Below are positions 21,417-45,921 of a stretch of 64,000 nt of DNA, piece after piece (within the stretch, counting starts at the first letter, position 1; each line of letters opens with the position of its first letter). The stretch is from assembly GCA_902782665.1 (NCBI GenBank), contig CACZOA010000054.1, forward strand, positions 1 to 64,000. The letters are read 5' to 3'. The notes beneath the pieces were generated by a model that did not search any database, was not told the origin of the DNA, and saw only the letters and a list, made by a program, of their open reading frames with translations. A program made the translations under genes and the position numbers. The DNA is from an uncultured Bacteroidales bacterium. GTDB lineage: Bacteria > Bacteroidota > Bacteroidia > Bacteroidales > Paludibacteraceae.

Positions 21417-24400
21417 TTAATACTCGTCCCAGCTCTTGATCTTGATGTCCTCAAACTTAAGCTCGCAAACTGAGCGGATAAACGCACTTGCAAGACGGGC
21501 ATTTGTGATCAACGGAATATTGAAGTCGATCGCGCTTCGACGGATCGCATATCCATTGTTTATCTCACGTTCTGTATTATTCTTTGGTATGTTGATCACC
21601 AAATCAAACTCCTTGTTATGAATCATCTCCATAACATTCTTCTTTGCATTTGGTTCATCTGGCCAACCTACTGGAATTGACTTGATGCCGTTCTCATCCA
21701 AGAACTTGTATGTTCCGTATGTAGCGTAGATATCAAAACCGTTGTTCTGAAGCATCTTGCAAGCGTCTAGCAAATCTACCTTTGATTTTGCCTCTCCTGA
21801 TGAGATCATCACGTTCTTCTTCGGTATCTTGTATCCTACTGACAACAATGACTTCAACAATGCCTCCGACAAATCATCTCCGATACATCCAACCTCTCCT
21901 GTTGAACTCATATCCACTCCATGTACCGGATCGGCTTGTGTCAAACGTGCGTATGAGAACTGTGATGCCTTAACTCCTACATAGTCAAGATCAAACGCAC
22001 TCTTCTCTGGCTTCTCTACCTTCTGTCCTAACATGATCTTTGTAGCCAACTCAATAAAGTTGATCTTCAAAACCTTGCTGACAAATGGGAAGCTTCGTGA
22101 TGATCGCAAGTTACACTCGATAACTTTGATCTCGTTATTCTTAGCCAAGAACTGGATGTTGAATGGTCCAGATATATGAAGCGCAGCTGCGATCTTACGC
22201 GCAATCGCTTTGATTCTGCGTACAGTCTCTACATAAATCTTCTGTGGTGGGAACTGAGTTGTGGCATCTCCTGAGTGTACTCCTGCAAACTCAATATGCT
22301 CACTAATCGCGTAAACAACAATCTCTCCGTTCTGAGCAACAGCGTCAATCTCGATCTCCTTACATCTCTCCATAAACTCAGAGATGACAACAGGATGTTT
22401 CTTTGATACGTTGGCTGCCAACTTCAAGAAATTCTCAAGCTGTGACTTGTCGTAGCAAACATTCATCGCAGCTCCAGACAACACATATGATGGACGTACC
22501 AATACTGGGAATCCAACTTCATCAACAAATCCGTAGATATCCTCAAGACTTGTAAGCTCACTCCAACGTGGCTGGTCGATTCCAAGTTCATCACACATAG
22601 ATGAGAACTTCTGTCGGTCCTCAGCACGGTCGATATCGACTGCCTGTGTACCAAGCAATGTCACACCTGCATCTGAAAGTTTTACAGCAAGGTTGTTTGG
22701 AATCTGTCCTCCCGTCGACACAATGACTCCCTTCGGATTCTCCATCTCTATGATATCCATCACACGCTCGAAACTCAACTCATCGAAGTAAAGTCTGTCG
22801 CACATATCATAGTCAGTAGAAACTGTCTCTGGATTGTAGTTGATCATCACTGAACGAAGACCTTCCTTGCGGATTGTGTTCAACGCATTTACACCACACC
22901 AGTCGAACTCTACAGATGATCCGATTCGGTATGCTCCAGATCCAAGTACGACTACCGACTTATGGTCGCCAACATACTTGACATCATTTGCTGTACCTGA
23001 ATATGTGACATATAGATAATTTGTCTGTGCTGGATACTCAGCGGCAAGTGTATCGATCTGCTTAACTACAGGCAAGATACCTTTGTTCTTTCTGTGTGCA
23101 CGGACATTCAAAACCTCTTTTTCAATCACGTCGTTGCCACACTTTGTAACAAGACGAGCTATCTGGAAGTCGGAGAATCCCAACTGTTTTGCACGAAGAA
23201 GAATGCCATCTGGCAACTCCTTCAACGAGTTGAATTCTGATAGATTCTTCTCCAAACTGATAATATTCTCAAGTTTCTGCAAGAACCACAAGTCGATCTT
23301 TGTCAATTCGTGAATTCTCTCTATAGAATAACCCTCATGAAGAGCCTGTGCGATATAGAATATACGCTTATCAGTAGGCTTTGACAATGCTGAATCCAAA
23401 TCGTCGGACATCAAATCTTTGTTTGCAACAAATCCGTGCATGCCCTGTCCGATCATACGAAGACCCTTCTGGATGCTCTCCTCAAATGTGCGTCCGATTG
23501 CCATGATCTCACCGACCGACTTCATTGAAGATCCTAGCAGACGGCTTACTCCATGGAATTTACCAAGATCCCAACGAGGAATCTTACATACGATATAGTC
23601 GAGAGCAGGCTCAAAGAATGCTGAAGTCTCCTTTGTCACAGAGTTCTTAAGCTCTGGCAAAGCATAACCCATACCAAGTTTAGCAGCGACAAAAGCAAGT
23701 GGATATCCCGTCGCCTTTGAAGCCAAAGCAGAAGATCTTGATAGACGGGCGTTAACCTCGATCACTCTGTAATCTTCACTCTGTGGGTCGTATGCGTACT
23801 GCACATTACACTCTCCTACGATTCCGATATGACGGATAATGCGGATTGCAGTCTCACGTAGTTTATGATAATCTTTATTTGAAAGTGTCTGAGACGGTGC
23901 AACTACGATACTCTCTCCTGTATGGATTCCAAGTGGGTCGAAGTTTTCCATATTACATACTGTAATACAGTTGTCGTACTTATCACGGACAACCTCATAC
24001 TCAACCTCTTTCCATCCCTTCAACGACTTCTCTACCAACACCTGTGGAGAATAAGAGAATGCCTTCTCAACAAGTATTCTCAACTCTTCATCGTTGTTGC
24101 AGAAACCAGATCCTAGTCCACCAAGTGCGTAAGCGGCGCGCACGATCACTGGATAGCCAAGCTCGTTAGCAGCCTTCAAAGCATGGTCGATATCTGTAAC
24201 AGCCTCACTCTTAATATAGTTGACGTTGATTTCAGCCAACTTCGAGTTGAAGATCTCACGGTCCTCTGTATCGATGATTGCCTGAACCGGAGTTCCAAGC
24301 ACCTCAATATTATATTTCTCTAGGATGCCTCCCTTATATAGAGCCACACCACAGTTCAACGCTGTCTGTCCACCGAACGACAAGAAGATTCCGTCTGGAC

Positions 24401-25763
24401 GCTCTTTCTGAATAACTCTCTCCACAAACTCAGGAGTCACAGGCAAGAAATAAACCTTGTCAGCCACACCCTCAGATGTCTGGACAGTTGCGATGTTTGG
24501 ATTGATAAGCACCGTCTTCACACCCTCTTCACGAAGAGCTTTCAACGCCTGTGAACCAGAGTAGTCAAACTCTCCTGCCTCACCGATCTTCAACGCGCCT
24601 GATCCAAGTAGCAATACTTTATTATACTTCTTAGGTCCAGTGAACTTGCCCTCGTCGATGATGCTTACTGGCTCTTTGCTCTGCTTTGCCACCATATCCA
24701 CGAATGTGTCGAACAAGAATTCTGTATCTGTAGGACCTGAACTTGCCTCTGGGTGGAACTGAGCCGAGAAGAAAGGCTTAGACTTATGACGGATACCCTC
24801 ATTTGTACCGTCGTTCATATTGATGAACAATGGCTCCCAATCAGATGGGATTGTTTTATTGTCGACGGCAAAACCGTGATTCTGCGAAGTGATATATGCA
24901 CGTGTGCTACCAACCATGCTCACTGGCTGGTTGTGGCTACGGTGACCATACTTCAATTTATATGTCTGAGCTCCAGCGGCGATAGAAAGCAACTGGTTAC
25001 CCATACAAATTCCGAAGATTGGCTTGTTTTTCTGCAATGCGACGCGGATGTGCTCGACTGTCTTTCCGCAAAGGGCAGGGTTACCTGGACCGTTTGAGAT
25101 GAATAGTCCGTCATACTCAAGAGTGTTGAAATCGTAGTCCCAAGGCACGCGAGTTAGGGTCACATCTCGTTTCAACAAGCAACGGATAATATTATTCTTG
25201 ACACCACAATCGACCATCACGATCTTGTACTTACCTTTTCCGTAAGTCACAACCTCCTTGCAACTTACCTTAGCGACAAGATTCTCAAGATTTGGATCAA
25301 CGAATGGAATGTCTTTATTTTCATCAGGGAAAACCAACTTACCCTTCATCGCACCCTTCTCACGAACGATCTTCGTAAGCTCACGAGTGTCGATACCGCA
25401 GATTCCTGGGATTTTCTCAGCCTTTAGCCAGTCGCCAAGGCTCTTCACAGCGTTCCAATGGCTGTAGCGGTCAGAGTAGTCAGAGATAATGATTGCAGAC
25501 GCCTGAATTTTGTCAGACTCATAAAATTTGGAAATACCGAACTCATCCTTTTCATCATTCGGCACTCCGTAGTTGCCGACAAGAGGGAAAGTGACTGTTA
25601 ACAACTGGCCTGCATAAGATGGATCCGTCAAACTTTCTGGATAACCTACCATGGCAGTGGCAAACACTACCTCACCAGAAACAGGAGCCTCGTATCCAAA
25701 CGATTTTCCTTCAAATACGGTACCGTCTTCAAGCACCAAATTCAATGGTCTGTATGCGTGCAT
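21417..25763 (-). CDS. carAB: Carbamoyl-phosphate synthase, fused small (glutaminase) and large subunits
   Basis: 1448 residues that join CarA and CarB in one chain. Residues 1-360 are the small subunit: an N-terminal CPSase_sm domain, then a class I glutamine amidotransferase with nucleophile Cys253 (GICMGNQLLS) and His337/Glu339 (FHPEAS). A linker of about 20 residues (to about 380) leads into the large subunit. This has two ATP-grasp synthetase halves, each with a LLGSGA- or VLGSGAYRIGSSVEFD-type start, and a C-terminal MGS-like allosteric domain from about residue 1315. The product carbamoyl phosphate feeds pyrimidine and arginine synthesis. In most bacteria carA and carB are separate; fusion is typical of eukaryotic CPS. 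All key residues I checked are present. A second, unfused carB lies at 41819-45040. No consensus promoter was found in the 210 nt upstream. Confidence 0.96.
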   Translation of the reverse strand: MHAYRPLNLVLEDGTVFEGKSFGYEAPVSGEVVFATAMVGYPESLTDPSYAGQLLTVTFPLVGNYGVPNDEKDEFGISKFYESDKIQASAIIISDYSDRYSHWNAVKSLGDWLKAEKIPGICGIDTRELTKIVREKGAMKGKLVFPDENKDIPFVDPNLENLVAKVSCKEVVTYGKGKYKIVMVDCGVKNNIIRCLLKRDVTLTRVPWDYDFNTLEYDGLFISNGPGNPALCGKTVEHIRVALQKNKPIFGICMGNQLLSIAAGAQTYKLKYGHRSHNQPVSMVGSTRAYITSQNHGFAVDNKTIPSDWEPLFINMNDGTNEGIRHKSKPFFSAQFHPEASSGPTDTEFLFDTFVDMVAKQSKEPVSIIDEGKFTGPKKYNKVLLLGSGALKIGEAGEFDYSGSQALKALREEGVKTVLINPNIATVQTSEGVADKVYFLPVTPEFVERVIQKERPDGIFLSFGGQTALNCGVALYKGGILEKYNIEVLGTPVQAIIDTEDREIFNSKLAEINVNYIKSEAVTDIDHALKAANELGYPVIVRAAYALGGLGSGFCNNDEELRILVEKAFSYSPQVLVEKSLKGWKEVEYEVVRDKYDNCITVCNMENFDPLGIHTGESIVVAPSQTLSNKDYHKLRETAIRIIRHIGIVGECNVQYAYDPQSEDYRVIEVNARLSRSSALASKATGYPLAFVAAKLGMGYALPELKNSVTKETSAFFEPALDYIVCKIPRWDLGKFHGVSRLLGSSMKSVGEIMAIGRTFEESIQKGLRMIGQGMHGFVANKDLMSDDLDSALSKPTDKRIFYIAQALHEGYSIERIHELTKIDLWFLQKLENIISLEKNLSEFNSLKELPDGILLRAKQLGFSDFQIARLVTKCGNDVIEKEVLNVRAHRKNKGILPVVKQIDTLAAEYPAQTNYLYVTYSGTANDVKYVGDHKSVVVLGSGAYRIGSSVEFDWCGVNALNTIRKEGLRSVMINYNPETVSTDYDMCDRLYFDELSFERVMDIIEMENPKGVIVSTGGQIPNNLAVKLSDAGVTLLGTQAVDIDRAEDRQKFSSMCDELGIDQPRWSELTSLEDIYGFVDEVGFPVLVRPSYVLSGAAMNVCYDKSQLENFLKLAANVSKKHPVVISEFMERCKEIEIDAVAQNGEIVVYAISEHIEFAGVHSGDATTQFPPQKIYVETVRRIKAIARKIAAALHISGPFNIQFLAKNNEIKVIECNLRSSRSFPFVSKVLKINFIELATKIMLGQKVEKPEKSAFDLDYVGVKASQFSYARLTQADPVHGVDMSSTGEVGCIGDDLSEALLKSLLSVGYKIPKKNVMISSGEAKSKVDLLDACKMLQNNGFDIYATYGTYKFLDENGIKSIPVGWPDEPNAKKNVMEMIHNKEFDLVINIPKNNTEREINNGYAIRRSAIDFNIPLITNARLASAFIRSVCELKFEDIKIKSWDEY

Positions 25764-41821: not shown

Positions 41822-44800
41822 ATACTCCTGCCAAGTCTTAATCTTGATATCAGACATACTCTTTATCGACAATGCACGGATATATGCGCTTGCAAGACGA
41901 GCGTTTGTCATCAATGGAATATTGTGGTCGATCGCAGAACGACGGATCTTGTATCCATTTGTAAGCTCACGCTTTGTCTGATCCTTTGGTATGTTGATAA
42001 CCAAATCAATCTGATGGTTAGACATCAACTTAGCGATGTTCTCCTTACCGTTCGACTCCTCATCTGGCCAGCAAACAGCTGTAGCCTGGATACCATGATC
42101 GCCCAAGAACTTCTGTGTTCCATCTGTTGCGTAGATCTTGTATCCCTTAGCAGCCAACATCTTGCATGCGTCAAGAAGCTCGACCTTTCCACGAACATCT
42201 CCTGATGAAACCAAGATTCCCTTCTGTGGAATTGGATAACCAACTGATATCATTGAAGTAAGCAATGCCTCTTCGAAATCAGCTCCGATACATCCAACCT
42301 CTCCTGTCGACGACATGTCTACGCCAAGCACTGGATCTGCCTTGTGAAGACGTGCGAAAGAGAACTGTGATGCCTTAACTCCAACATAGTCAATATCGAA
42401 TGTTGAAGAATCTGGTGTCTCAACTGGAACATCAAGCATAATCTTTGTAGCAGTCTCGATGAAGTTTCTCTTCAATACCTTCGATACGAATGGGAAACTA
42501 CGTGATGCACGCAAGTTACACTCGATAACCTTAACATCATTGTTCTTTGCAAGGAACTGGATATTGAATGGTCCGCTGATGTTCAACTCCTCAGCGATCT
42601 TCTTACTGATTCTCTTGATTCTACGGGCTGTCTCCAAGTAGATATTCTGTGCTGGGAATACAAGTGTAGCGTCGCCTGAGTGAACTCCTGCAAACTCAAC
42701 ATGCTCAGAAATAGCATACTCGATAACCTTACCGTTCTTAGCAACCGCGTCGAACTCGATCTCCTTTGCCTCCTGCATGAACACAGACACAACTACTGGA
42801 TACTCCTTAGATACCTTTGCGGCAGCCTTCAAGAATGTGTGCATCTGCTCTTTGTTGTGGCAAACGTTCATTGCCGCACCTGAAAGCACGTATGATGGAC
42901 GAATCAACACTGGGAAGCCGACCTCATCAATGAAGGCGTCAATCTCGTCGAAGCTTGTCAACTCCTTCCATCTTGGCTGGTCGATTCCTAGCTGGTCAAG
43001 CATTGCAGAGAACTTGTGACGGTTTTCAGCACGGTCGATAGATACTGGTGATGTTCCTAGGATAGGCACATTCTGACGGTGTAACTTCATCGCCAAATTG
43101 TTAGGGATCTGTCCACCCACAGATACAATCACACCCTTAGGAGTCTCCAAATCCAAAACATCCAATACACGCTCGTAGCTCAACTCATCAAAGTAAAGTC
43201 TGTCGCACATATCGTAGTCTGTTGAGACTGTCTCTGGGTTGTAGTTGATCATGATCGACTTGTAACCCAACTTTCTTGCAGTCTGTACAGCATTTACCGA
43301 ACACCAGTCGAACTCTACAGATGAACCGATACGGTAAGCTCCGGAACCAAGAACAACGATTGACTTGTCATTCTTGTAATTATAATTGATAGAGTGCTCA
43401 GTAGCACCGTAAGTCATATATAGATAGTTAGTCAACTCTGGATGCTCAGAAGCGACAGTGTTGATTCTTCTAACCGCAGGAACGATATTGTTCTTCTTAC
43501 GAGATGCACGTACACGTAGGATCTCCTTCTCCATGTTGCCAGAAGGATTCTCGCAGTAGCGAGCGATCTGGAAGTCGGAGAATCCAAGACGCTTAGCCTC
43601 ACGCATCACATCTGCTGGGATATCCTCGATTGTCTTATACTTAGCGATTACCTTAGTGTAGTCAACAATATTCTTCAACTTGTTCAAGAACCAGATGTCG
43701 ATCTTTGTCAACTCCTCGATTCTCTCCACTGTGTAACCTTTCTCCAAAGCAGCGGCGATAGCGAAGATACGCAAGTCTGTAGGATGAGAAAGTTCCTTAT
43801 CCAAGTCGCCAAACTCAAGGTCTCTGTTGCCAACGAATCCGTGCATACCCTGTCCGATCATACGAAGACCCTTCTGGATAATCTCCTCGAAAGACTTACC
43901 GATTGACATGATTTCACCGACTGACTTCATTGAAGATCCGATCTCACGGTCGACACCAGCGAACTTAGTCAAATCCCAACGAGGAATCTTAACAATCATA
44001 TAGTCGACAGACGGTGCGACGTAAGCTGAGTTAGGAGTACCCATCTCACCGATCTGGTCAAGTGAGTAACCCAAAGCTAACTTAGCGGCAACGAATGCCA
44101 ATGGATAACCAGAAGCCTTAGATGCCAAAGCAGAAGAACGGCTCAAACGAGCGTTGATCTCGATGATACGGTAGTCGTTTGTCTGTGCGTTGAAAGCGTA
44201 CTGGATATTACACTCACCAACGATTCCGATATGGCGAACAACCTTCTTTGCAACCTCCTGAAGGAATGTGATCTGCTCCTGAGACAAAGAGATGATTGGA
44301 GCGACGACGATAGACTCTCCAGTGTGGATGCCAAGTGGATCGAAGTTTTCCATAGGCACAACAGTGAAGCAGTGATCGTTCTTATCACGGATAACCTCGA
44401 ACTCGATCTCCTTCCAACCCTTCAACGACTCCTCAACAAGGATCTGCTTTGAGTGAGCCAACGCACTGTCGCAAAGTTCACGGAATTCAGCCTCGTTCTC
44501 GCAAACACCAGAACCAAGACCACCAAGAGCGTAAGCCGAACGAACCATCACAGGGAATCCGATCTCGTGAGCTACACGAAGAGCATCCTCCATCGACTCA
44601 ACAGCCTCCGACTTAGGAGTAAGAGCCTTGATCTCATCCAACTTCTTTACAAACAAATCACGGTCCTCAGTGATCATGATAGCGTCAACGGACGTACCTA
44701 GAACCTTGACACCATATTTCTCAAAAATGCCGTTTGTGTACAACTCAGTACCACAGTTAAGTGCTGTCTGTCCACCAAAAGCAAGCAAAATTCCGTCTGG

Positions 44801-45040
44801 TTTCTCCTTCTTGATAACCTCCTCAACGAAGTATGGAGTGATTGGTAAGAAATAAACTTTGTCAGCAACACCAGCAGAAGTCTGGATTGTTGCGATGTTT
44901 GGATTAATCAACACTGTGCTGATACCCTCCTCGCGCATTGCCTTCAATGCCTGCGAACCTGAGTAGTCAAACTCACCTGCCTGTCCGATCTTCAAAGCTC
45001 CGGATCCAAGCAGAATGACCTTTTTGATTCCTTCTATCAT
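41819..45040 (-). CDS. carB: Carbamoyl-phosphate synthase large subunit, free-standing paralogue
   Basis: 1073 residues from the ATG at 45040 (MIEGIKKVILLGSGALKIGQ). The normal CarB order is present: two ATP-grasp halves and an MGS-like regulatory domain from about residue 940. It is very similar to the CarB part of the fused gene at 21417-25763, down to the C-terminal IKIKTWQEY/IKIKSWDEY. No carA lies beside it, so it must use ammonia, borrow a glutaminase from elsewhere, or pair with an unlinked CarA. Both CarBs have the segment DPVxGVDMSSTGEVGCIG, which recalls eukaryotic CPS (MASTGEVACFG) more than E. coli CarB. A long leader with a terminator-like hairpin suggests separate regulation. 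Codons upstream of 45040 to 45109 are open but overlap the attenuator. Confidence 0.94.
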   Translation of the reverse strand: MIEGIKKVILLGSGALKIGQAGEFDYSGSQALKAMREEGISTVLINPNIATIQTSAGVADKVYFLPITPYFVEEVIKKEKPDGILLAFGGQTALNCGTELYTNGIFEKYGVKVLGTSVDAIMITEDRDLFVKKLDEIKALTPKSEAVESMEDALRVAHEIGFPVMVRSAYALGGLGSGVCENEAEFRELCDSALAHSKQILVEESLKGWKEIEFEVIRDKNDHCFTVVPMENFDPLGIHTGESIVVAPIISLSQEQITFLQEVAKKVVRHIGIVGECNIQYAFNAQTNDYRIIEINARLSRSSALASKASGYPLAFVAAKLALGYSLDQIGEMGTPNSAYVAPSVDYMIVKIPRWDLTKFAGVDREIGSSMKSVGEIMSIGKSFEEIIQKGLRMIGQGMHGFVGNRDLEFGDLDKELSHPTDLRIFAIAAALEKGYTVERIEELTKIDIWFLNKLKNIVDYTKVIAKYKTIEDIPADVMREAKRLGFSDFQIARYCENPSGNMEKEILRVRASRKKNNIVPAVRRINTVASEHPELTNYLYMTYGATEHSINYNYKNDKSIVVLGSGAYRIGSSVEFDWCSVNAVQTARKLGYKSIMINYNPETVSTDYDMCDRLYFDELSYERVLDVLDLETPKGVIVSVGGQIPNNLAMKLHRQNVPILGTSPVSIDRAENRHKFSAMLDQLGIDQPRWKELTSFDEIDAFIDEVGFPVLIRPSYVLSGAAMNVCHNKEQMHTFLKAAAKVSKEYPVVVSVFMQEAKEIEFDAVAKNGKVIEYAISEHVEFAGVHSGDATLVFPAQNIYLETARRIKRISKKIAEELNISGPFNIQFLAKNNDVKVIECNLRASRSFPFVSKVLKRNFIETATKIMLDVPVETPDSSTFDIDYVGVKASQFSFARLHKADPVLGVDMSSTGEVGCIGADFEEALLTSMISVGYPIPQKGILVSSGDVRGKVELLDACKMLAAKGYKIYATDGTQKFLGDHGIQATAVCWPDEESNGKENIAKLMSNHQIDLVINIPKDQTKRELTNGYKIRRSAIDHNIPLMTNARLASAYIRALSIKSMSDIKIKTWQEY

Positions 45041-45075
45041 AACCGTATAATAAATTGTTTCTTTTTCTAAAATGC

Positions 45076-45108
45076 AAAAAAAATGCGTCGGAATCAAAAA
45101 CCAACGCA
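45076..45108 (-). promoter_or_regulatory. Transcription attenuator in the carB leader
   Basis: Minus-strand TGCGTTGG (45108-45101) pairs with CCGACGCA (45091-45084) in an 8-bp stem with one G-U, followed at once by U8 (45083-45076). It is a complete intrinsic terminator located between the carB promoter and the ATG, ending 35 nt before the start codon. Confidence 0.7.
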
Positions 45109-45134
45109 ATTAAAAAGGAAAAGTGAAACGACAT

Positions 45135-45156
45135 GCGGATGTGTTGTCCGCAACAG
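45135..45156 (-). promoter_or_regulatory. Alternative hairpins upstream of the carB attenuator
   Basis: GCGGA/TCCGC (45151-45147 with 45139-45135 on the minus strand) and TGTTG-CGGA-CAACA (45156-45143) share bases and exclude each other. Such switching upstream of a terminator is expected in attenuation. How it couples to the terminator stem is not evident. Confidence 0.4.
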
Positions 45157-45165
45157 CCAATTGCT

Positions 45166-45186
45166 TATGTCCATAGTCCATAGTCA
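45166..45186. repeat. Three 7-bp units related to ATAGTCC in the carB leader
   Basis: TATGTCC, ATAGTCC and ATAGTCA are contiguous. This is a third heptad family in the window, here inside an untranslated leader. Confidence 0.55.
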
Positions 45187-45209
45187 TACCACCTTCTTTT
45201 TGAATCGTG

Positions 45210-45241
45210 CAAATCTACACAAATTCTGTCTACTTCCCAAA
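45210..45241 (-). promoter_or_regulatory. Consensus promoter of carB
   Basis: Minus-strand TTTG (45241-45238), 20-nt spacer, TAGATTTG (45217-45210). Start near 45203 gives a leader of about 163 nt containing the attenuator. Confidence 0.8.
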
Positions 45242-45532
45242 TTTTGACGGAAAGAATTGGAATGTAACTTTTCAACAAGAAAAGAATGCGACATATTTTA
45301 TGGTTACGGAGAACACATAACTGAATGTATTTACGTTAATTCGTTCAATACAACTGAAGGAATTTGCATTAAGTCCATCATTAATTACACCATCAGGCGT
45401 TTAACATCGGTAGAAAAATATTTAGATGGATTCCTTTTCTACCTCTTTAGAGGTTATAGGTTAAATGCCATTTACATTTTGGCAGTTCAAAAATTCATAA
45501 TTTGAGTCTTTTAACAAACACTCATTATTCAT
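45242..45532. other. Gene-free stretch between the carB promoter and the hicB terminator
   Basis: AT-rich, about 290 nt. The only sizeable frame (45257-45505, plus, 82 codons) has no recognisable domain, no promoter box and unusual composition, so I do not call it a gene. No other structure seen. Confidence 0.5.
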
Positions 45533-45559
45533 AAAAAAAGACGGGATTCCACCCGTCTT
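45533..45559 (-). terminator. Intrinsic terminator of the hicA-hicB locus
   Basis: AAGACGGG (45538-45545) pairs with CCCGTCTT (45552-45559); U-run on the minus strand (45533-45539). Nearly the same stem as the radA terminator. Confidence 0.85.
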
Positions 45560-45582
45560 CCTAATAATTATTTTCGTTTCGT

Positions 45583-45921
45583 TTACGACATCGCAGCCAC
45601 TTTGCTTTCCACCGCTTCTCGAATAAATGCATTTATCGAAATACCTGCTTTTTTTGCCAAAAGTGCCACTTGGTTGTGAATACTTGGCGTAAGGCTTATA
45701 CTTAAAGAAACATTATGACTTTTTTGCGGTTCTATTTTTCTTTCCTCACAAAAAGTGAGATAATCATCCACAGCTTCATGAAAAGCAGCTTTAAGTTCAG
45801 ATACACTCTCCCCTTCGTAAGTCACAACACTTCCGATACCTTCTATTTTTCCAAAAAAAGTATCATCTTCTTCACTGAATGCGACACTTCCAATATAACC
45901 TTTATAACTCATTGTGTTCAT
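45583..45921 (-). CDS. hicB: HicB-family antitoxin
   Basis: 112 residues. The N-terminal HicB partial-RNase-H-like domain reads YKGYIGSVAFSEEDDTFFGKIEGI, then VTYEGESVSELKAAFHEAVDDYL. It is followed by a C-terminal ribbon-helix-helix domain (VSLSISLTPSIHNQVALLAKKAGISINAFIREAV) that binds DNA and represses the locus. An internal ATG at 45912 would remove three residues. It lies 14 nt after the disrupted hicA. The antitoxin is intact although its toxin is frameshifted, so it may survive as a regulator or a protective antitoxin. Confidence 0.9.
   Translation of the reverse strand: MNTMSYKGYIGSVAFSEEDDTFFGKIEGIGSVVTYEGESVSELKAAFHEAVDDYLTFCEERKIEPQKSHNVSLSISLTPSIHNQVALLAKKAGISINAFIREAVESKVAAMS

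What the first reader, a model, noticed from the sequence alone, without database searches (positions are those of the whole stretch)
45041..45241. carB is preceded by a leader that looks like a transcription attenuator
A complete promoter (TTTG-N20-TAGATTTG, 45241-45210) starts a leader of about 163 nt. Between it and the ATG lies a perfect intrinsic terminator (8-bp stem 45108-45084, then U8), ending 35 nt before the start codon. The upstream neighbour hicB has its own terminator, so this one can only act on carB. Mutually exclusive small hairpins (45135-45156) and a 7-bp repeat (45166-45186) lie upstream. Pyrimidine or arginine control by premature termination is an attractive idea; neither PyrR-type elements nor a leader peptide with diagnostic codons was recognised.
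Basis: partly seen in the sequence, partly recalled or inferred. Interest (0 to 1): 0.75.

Follow-up and report, generated by a model that had tools for sequence, protein, structure and literature searches.

The report
Likely UTP-sensing attenuator before carB
Just before a carbamoyl-phosphate synthase gene of a Bacteroidales bacterium lies a short decoy gene with a uridine-rich end that runs straight into a transcription stop signal, an arrangement found in many relatives that probably lets the cell switch the gene on only when its pyrimidine nucleotides run low.

Summary
Observation confirmed to the base: promoter, hairpin, terminator (8-bp stem, U8) and spacing to carB are as described. Its stop codon ends one base before the terminator stem and its last codons form a U-rich tract (CUUUUCCUUUUU) 10 nt after the hairpin.

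The layout recurs before carB genes not linked to carA: 84 of 151 unique upstream regions have a terminator within 130 nt of the start; 68 of those 84 also have an ORF ending at it (13.0 expected; 3 of the 68 are tRNA read-throughs). 0 of 28 carA-linked carB have the terminator. Between genera the peptide is not conserved but U-richness is, also at third positions of non-Phe codons. The terminator's 5' arm has no antiterminator partner. Six E. coli amino-acid attenuators keep 24-65 nt between stop codon and terminator; here the median is about zero.

Best reading: a pyrBI-like, translation-coupled, UTP-sensing attenuator. The architecture is well supported; UTP as effector is inferred. None of the paper listings seen named it. 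No experiment was available.

The parts
45210..45241 (-). Bacteroidota-type promoter TTTG-N20-TAGATTTG; start site expected near 45204 (inferred)
   Evidence: Sequence; consensus TTTG / TAnnTTTG seen in a passage of PMC7366714; TAnnTTTG upstream of the leader ATG in 38 of 54 clusters vs 3.4 shuffled
45192..45197 (-). Shine-Dalgarno-like AGAAGG, 4 nt before the leader ATG
   Evidence: Sequence
45110..45187 (-). Leader ORF, 25 codons plus TAA: MTMDYGHKQLAVADNTSACRFTFPF*
   Evidence: same 78-nt length and frame in 8 of 8 sequences picked by the shared start motif, variable columns by codon position 5/6/11
45134..45152 (-). Hairpin TGCGGA-CAACACA-TCCGCA inside the ORF, proposed polymerase pause hairpin
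   Evidence: -7.2 kcal/mol, 10 nt before the U tract; modest covariation
45112..45123 (-). U-rich tract CUUUUCCUUUUU, proposed UTP-sensing pause region
45076..45108 (-). Intrinsic terminator (the attenuator): 8-bp stem, 9-nt loop, U8
   Evidence: only match to TGCGTT-N8-25-ACGCATTTTTT in the held genome
41819..45040 (-). carB, complete carbamoyl-phosphate synthase large chain (1073 aa), the paralogue not linked to carA
   Evidence: Pfam; tree
45534..45559 (-). Terminator of the upstream hicB gene

Best explanation
This is a transcription attenuator that works like that of E. coli pyrBI. Polymerase starts near 45204 and a ribosome loads on the 25-codon leader ORF. Polymerase slows behind the hairpin and in the U-rich tract. 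If UTP is scarce the pause is long, the ribosome catches up and runs to the stop codon, one base before the terminator stem; there it covers the 5' arm, the terminator cannot fold, and carB is transcribed. If UTP is plentiful polymerase moves ahead of the ribosome, the terminator folds, and a leader RNA of about 129 nt ends near 45076. Shown by sequence and comparison: promoter, ORF, hairpin, U tract, terminator, their order and spacing, their recurrence before carA-unlinked carB, and the lack of an antiterminator partner. Inferred: translation of the ORF, pausing, ribosome blocking, and UTP (possibly also CTP) as the signal.
For: Terminator in 84 of 151 unique carA-unlinked carB upstreams, 0 of 28 carA-linked. 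ORF of 18-60 codons with stop codon in [-14,+22] of the stem in 68 of the 84 vs 13.0 (sd 3.4, max 20) in 100 shuffles; 3 of the 68 (L246, L249, L250) read through a tRNA gene. Best 12-nt U count in the last 62 nt 8.96 vs 7.24 shuffled over 54 clusters, Wilcoxon 9e-9. U is favoured at nucleotide level: third-position U in non-Phe codons 251 of 467 in the last 12 codons vs 233 of 644 earlier, p 8e-9; best 6-codon window 603 U vs 564 (sd 7.6, max 587 of 1000) under synonymous resampling from the leaders' own codons. Stop codon starts at a median of -1 nt from the stem, whereas six E. coli amino-acid leaders stop 24-65 nt before it and pyrL runs through; passages of PMC4824070 say ribosomes repress terminators close to a stop codon and that amino-acid attenuators keep more than 20 bp. 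No antiterminator (2 of 54 at p<0.05). Terminator + ORF + at least 9 U in 12: carA-unlinked carB 53 of 84 terminators; pyrB 1 of 16, pyrE 0 of 4, carA 0 of 1. Constant ORF length and third-position bias in near relatives.
Against: No expression, pausing or UTP-response data. 67 of 151 carA-unlinked upstreams failed the terminator test; by eye a few (L016, L017, L048) have long-loop or bulged terminators that the test misses, but the 7 Prevotellaceae and 3 Muribaculaceae rows of the clade show no leader. On the tree the leader label needs 15 changes, so gains, losses or missed cases are frequent. Singly, the U-tract test passes p<0.05 in only 13 of 54 clusters and 13 of 54 lack a 12-nt window with 9 U. 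The pause hairpin is significant as a set (-3.2 vs -2.0 kcal/mol, p 0.004) but only 8 of 54 pass p<=0.05 singly. 50 of 54 leaders have Phe in the last 12 codons, so Phe sensing is not formally excluded. In the window sequence a second ORF (MDISNW..., stop at +12) overlaps in another frame. E. coli pyrE, a UTP-sensitive attenuator, scores like an amino-acid leader in my yardstick (offset -37, 7 U of 30), and E. coli is less AT-rich, so the U comparison across species is not corrected for composition. pyrB and pyrE of the own genus show no such leader. Tight ribosome-polymerase coupling in Bacteroidota is assumed, not shown.
Confidence: 0.66

Rival explanations
1. [quoted passage not shown]
For: Phe in the last 12 codons of 50 of 54 clusters, two or more in 37; the window peptide ends FTFPF.
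Against: UUU codons follow from U-richness; U is also raised at third positions of non-Phe codons (p 8e-9) and Phe codons shift to UUU (UUU:UUC 87:23 late, 25:21 earlier). The stop codon abuts the terminator instead of lying 24-65 nt away. No antiterminator. Phe control of carbamoyl phosphate makes little metabolic sense (inference).
Confidence: 0.1
2. Translation-coupled attenuator that senses another signal (arginine through a nascent peptide, CTP, or general ribosome speed) through the same geometry.
For: Geometry alone suggests only ribosome dependence; carbamoyl phosphate also feeds arginine.
Against: No peptide residue is shared by the leaders of different genera by eye; Arg in the last 12 codons of only 18 of 54. 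The shared quantity is U.
Confidence: 0.16
3. A plain terminator: the 3' end of a small RNA or constitutive partial attenuation, the ORF and U tract being incidental.
For: The ORF test alone is not very specific: pyrB loci give such ORFs in 7 of 16.
Against: 68 of 84 vs 13.0 expected (3 spurious); U-tract signal is lower in pyrB, pyrE and carA controls and before 40 other terminators (U fraction in the 30 nt before the stem 0.34 vs 0.47, p 5e-6).
Confidence: 0.06
4. PyrR-type attenuator or riboswitch with alternative hairpins.
For: Pyrimidine-pathway gene with a leader terminator.
Against: No PyrR element or riboswitch among the 11 Rfam matches at E<=10 in 44800-45600; no antiterminator pairing.
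Confidence: 0.02

Closest known systems
E. coli pyrBI (pyrL) UTP-sensing attenuator
   Same: Leader ORF with a U-rich stretch before an intrinsic terminator, coupled translation preventing termination, pyrimidine-pathway gene; 12 U in the 30 nt before the stem in pyrBI, mean 14.2 in 54 carB leader clusters (not corrected for base composition).
   Different: Different phylum and gene; here the ORF usually stops at the base of the stem, whereas the pyrL stop codon lies 44 nt past the stem start; no sequence relation seen; Bacteroidota-type promoter; UTP response untested.
E. coli rph-pyrE attenuator
   Same: An upstream ORF ends before the terminator and coupled translation prevents termination (mechanism recalled; UTP-sensitive attenuation of pyrE is named in a passage of PMC4491880).
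   Different: There the upstream ORF is a full gene, annotated as truncated in MG1655 (offset -37); here a dedicated short leader.
Amino-acid leader-peptide attenuators (trpL, hisL, pheL, thrL, leuL, ilvL)
   Same: Short leader ORF plus terminator.
   Different: Stop codon 24-65 nt before the stem there, about 0 here; an antiterminator there (recalled), none found here.

Membership tests
pyrBI-type UTP-sensing attenuation | Intrinsic terminator between promoter and a pyrimidine-pathway gene | tested here: met
pyrBI-type UTP-sensing attenuation | Leader ORF that reaches the terminator | tested here: met
   Geometry only: stop codon ends 1 nt before the stem; 68 of 84 relatives vs 13.0 shuffled, 3 of the 68 spurious. 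Translation itself not tested
pyrBI-type UTP-sensing attenuation | U-rich tract shortly upstream of the terminator | tested here: met
   As a set; singly p<0.05 in 13 of 54 clusters; window itself p 0.06
pyrBI-type UTP-sensing attenuation | UTP-dependent polymerase pausing in the U-rich tract | not testable with these tools
   Needs in vitro transcription
pyrBI-type UTP-sensing attenuation | Expression rises when UTP falls, dependent on leader translation | not testable with these tools
   Needs cells
Amino-acid leader-peptide attenuator | Run of regulatory codons for one amino acid | tested here: inconclusive
   Phe common (50 of 54) but explicable by U-richness
Amino-acid leader-peptide attenuator | Antiterminator that pairs with the terminator 5' arm | tested here: not met
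   2 of 54 at p<0.05; mean -6.0 vs -6.4 kcal/mol shuffled
Amino-acid leader-peptide attenuator | Stop codon well upstream of the terminator (24-65 nt in six E. coli cases) | tested here: not met
   Median -1 nt
PyrR-regulated attenuator | PyrR-binding element (Rfam) | tested here: not met
   Not among the 11 Rfam matches at E<=10

The most novel reading that the evidence does not exclude
Bacteroidales carry, independently of the gammaproteobacteria, a UTP-measuring attenuator on the stand-alone carbamoyl-phosphate synthase gene, possibly ancestral to that gene's clade; it needs the first ribosome to keep close to RNA polymerase, so it is a built-in reporter of transcription-translation coupling in Bacteroidota.
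Probability: 0.55. Interest if true: 0.75.

Novelty: new variant of a known kind. Interest (0 to 1): 0.62.

Why it matters
UTP-sensing attenuation is known to me only from E. coli and its kin (recalled). A second, unrelated case in another phylum, found before carB of some Bacteroides and Parabacteroides species, would show that measuring UTP by polymerase pausing is a recurrent solution. It would also give a natural reporter for whether ribosomes keep up with polymerase in Bacteroidota; among the titles listed by two searches on that question (11 of 11 papers; 10 of 65) I saw none that studies it directly. It further suggests that the stand-alone carB answers to pyrimidine need.

Tried and rejected
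Alternative antiterminator: tested over 54 clusters, not found. Sequestration of the leader Shine-Dalgarno by the U tract, suggested by the fold: not conserved (-7.4 vs -6.9 kcal/mol, p 0.16, 54 clusters). A covariance model of 13 leaders run on 41 genomes with stricter filters listed 31 matches: the 10 strong ones (E below 1e-12) all lie before carB by their coordinates; of the 21 weaker ones I looked at 13: 2 are carB leaders (L311, L317), for L313 the printed stretch does not show the match, and the other 10 look like ordinary terminators or chance; 8 were not looked at. Rfam: nothing relevant. The window test is biased by choosing the U-richest window; replaced.

Dropped rows and limits: of 199 loci, exact duplicates by the last 200 nt and 2 short ones were left out. 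'carA-unlinked' is decided by tblastn of carA upstream; in the tree three such carB (L080, L084, L096) fall with the carA-linked clade, and L032 is labelled without leader only because its upstream duplicates L006. The 54 clusters, formed by k-mer similarity, are not fully independent and include two tRNA read-through clusters (L246; L249 with L250). For the alignment A1 I dropped L202 (no matching leader) and L203 and L205 (copies of L035 and L036).

Papers: only listings, or passages by term, were seen (passages: PMC7366714, PMC9723704, PMC6245113, PMC10268239, PMC5021804, PMC4491880, PMC4824070, PMC12632263; PMC2965389 gave no passage for the terms); none was read whole. The MMBR review looked up by DOI was not held. 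Nine paper searches ran, several listing only part of their hits. Supplementary tables, including B. thetaiotaomicron short-ORF lists, could not be searched.

Full report
WHAT IS THERE. On the minus strand, between hicB (PF05534, with its own terminator) and a complete carB, lie a Bacteroidota-type promoter, a 25-codon ORF (MTMDYGHKQLAVADNTSACRFTFPF*, 45187-45110) with an AGAAGG 4 nt before its ATG, a 6-bp hairpin inside it (45152-45134), 10 nt, a U-rich tract CUUUUCCUUUUU (45123-45112) that makes up the last codons, a UAA ending one base before the stem of an intrinsic terminator (45108-45084, U8 to 45076), and 35 nt to the carB ATG. A second ORF (MDISNW..., stop at +12 of the stem) overlaps in another frame here and in L005 and L006, but not in L007 and L008.

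WHICH carB. The genome has two: this one, and a 1448-aa carA-carB fusion at 21417-25763. In a tree of 90 carB proteins, 67 carA-unlinked ones form one side of a branch with support 100; the other side holds the 20 linked ones and 3 unlinked (L080, L084, L096); all 29 leader-bearing rows are on the unlinked side. Three genomes at 95-100% completeness (G013, G015, G019) hold this carB but no carA over the family cut-off, so the enzyme may work without a glutaminase subunit, presumably on ammonia (inference).

CONSERVATION. From 199 loci, 179 unique upstream regions were compared: 151 carA-unlinked, 28 linked. An intrinsic terminator within 130 nt of the start is found in 84 of 151 and 0 of 28. 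Of the 84, 68 have an ATG ORF of 18-60 codons whose stop codon starts between -14 and +22 of the stem, against 13.0 (sd 3.4, maximum 20) when up to 150 nt before the stem are dinucleotide-shuffled 100 times; three of the 68 (L246, L249, L250) are read-throughs of a tRNA-Gln gene. The 68 form 54 clusters. In the tree the leader occurs in rows named Rikenellaceae, Barnesiellaceae (Coprobacter), Bacteroidaceae, Tannerellaceae (Parabacteroides) and Paludibacteraceae; the 7 Prevotellaceae and 3 Muribaculaceae rows of the clade lack it; the label needs 15 changes (24.7 when shuffled), so ancestry with losses, repeated gain and missed cases cannot be told apart. TAnnTTTG lies upstream of the leader ATG in 38 of 54 clusters, in 32 of them starting 28-46 nt before it, against 3.4 in shuffles. 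In eight sequences picked by the shared start motif (own genus and genus g4, two of them alike) the ORF is 78 nt long in 8 of 8, and 11 of 22 variable columns are third positions; L009 of the same genus was not in that set, its leader has another sequence but also 25 codons. In 13 aligned leaders 94.5% of the cells of the two hairpins pair and three pairs show a change on both sides, one in the inner hairpin and two in the terminator, against 0.6 in shuffles: modest covariation.

WHAT IS FAVOURED. Between genera the peptide differs; U is shared. The best 12-nt U count in the 62 nt before the stem averages 8.96 against 7.24 in shuffles (Wilcoxon 9e-9; singly p<0.05 in 13 of 54 clusters, p 0.06 for the window's own). 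U in the last 12 codons is 896 against 692 (sd 17) when codon order is shuffled, and synonymous resampling from the leaders' own codons gives 564 (sd 7.6) against 603 observed in the best 6-codon windows. Third positions of non-Phe codons carry U in 251 of 467 late codons and 233 of 644 earlier ones (p 8e-9), and Phe codons shift to UUU (87:23 late, 25:21 earlier). So the stretch seems kept for uridines rather than for one amino acid, although Phe occurs in 50 of 54. A hairpin in the 42 nt before the U tract is stronger than shuffled as a set (-3.2 vs -2.0 kcal/mol, p 0.004), with 8 of 54 passing singly.

MECHANISM CLASS. The terminator's 5' arm has no better partner upstream than expected (2 of 54 at p<0.05; mean -6.0 vs -6.4 kcal/mol shuffled), so no trp-like or riboswitch-like antiterminator is seen. 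The stop codon starts at a median of -1 nt from the stem. By the same kind of script, E. coli trp, phe, his, thr, leu and ilv leaders stop 24-65 nt before the stem and have 2-7 U in the preceding 30 nt; pyrBI has 12 U and its ORF runs through the terminator; pyrE has 7 U and an offset of -37 behind an rph annotated as truncated, so by this yardstick pyrE does not stand out. The comparison is not corrected for the lower AT content of E. coli. Passages of PMC4824070 state that a ribosome at a stop codon close to a terminator represses it, that more than 27 nt relieves this in their system, and that amino-acid attenuators keep more than 20 bp. The carB leaders therefore have the geometry of direct blocking by a coupled ribosome. 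In pyrBI, pausing in the leader couples polymerase and ribosome and normal UTP leaves the terminator active (passages of PMC4824070, and PMC5021804). Together with the U tract and the pyrimidine-pathway gene this makes UTP the most likely signal. That last step is inference.

CONTROLS. With the full signature (terminator, ORF, at least 9 U in 12), carA-unlinked carB scores 53 of 84 terminators from 151 loci (41 of 54 clusters); pyrB 1 of 16 from 30 loci, pyrE 0 of 4 from 28, carA 0 of 1 from 29. The ORF test alone is weakly specific (pyrB 7 of 16). Forty other terminators have a U fraction of 0.34 in the preceding 30 nt against 0.47 here (p 5e-6). A covariance model gave 10 strong matches in 41 genomes, all before carB.

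KNOWN OR NEW. No relevant Rfam match at E<=10. In nine paper searches, several showing only part of their hits, I saw no title or abstract start about a carB or UTP attenuator in Bacteroidota. A passage of PMC7366714 mentions B. thetaiotaomicron 5' UTRs with short ORFs reminiscent of leader peptides, and its main text holds neither 'carbamoyl' nor 'pyrimidine'; a passage of PMC9723704 reports leader-peptide attenuation clues for amino-acid operons of a flavobacterium. I describe it as working like pyrBI; membership awaits a UTP test.

Noticed in passing
L018, L246, L248, L249, L250 (upstream of carB, unnamed family members): A tRNA-Gln (CTG) gene stands where the leader ORF should be, directly before the carB terminator; the attenuator seems lost or replaced there.
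   Followed up: partly
window 21417-25763 (-): Second carbamoyl-phosphate synthase: a 1448-aa carA-carB fusion; only a weak terminator-like site with no leader signature was seen upstream.
   Followed up: partly
genomes G013, G015, G019: carB but no carA over the family cut-off in genomes 95-100% complete: perhaps an ammonia-dependent single-subunit synthase.
   Followed up: no
   Followed up: no
L321, L322, L323, L324, L325 (own genus): A conserved terminator with a U-rich lead-in downstream of a small gene weakly matches the covariance model; looks like an ordinary 3' end.
   Followed up: partly
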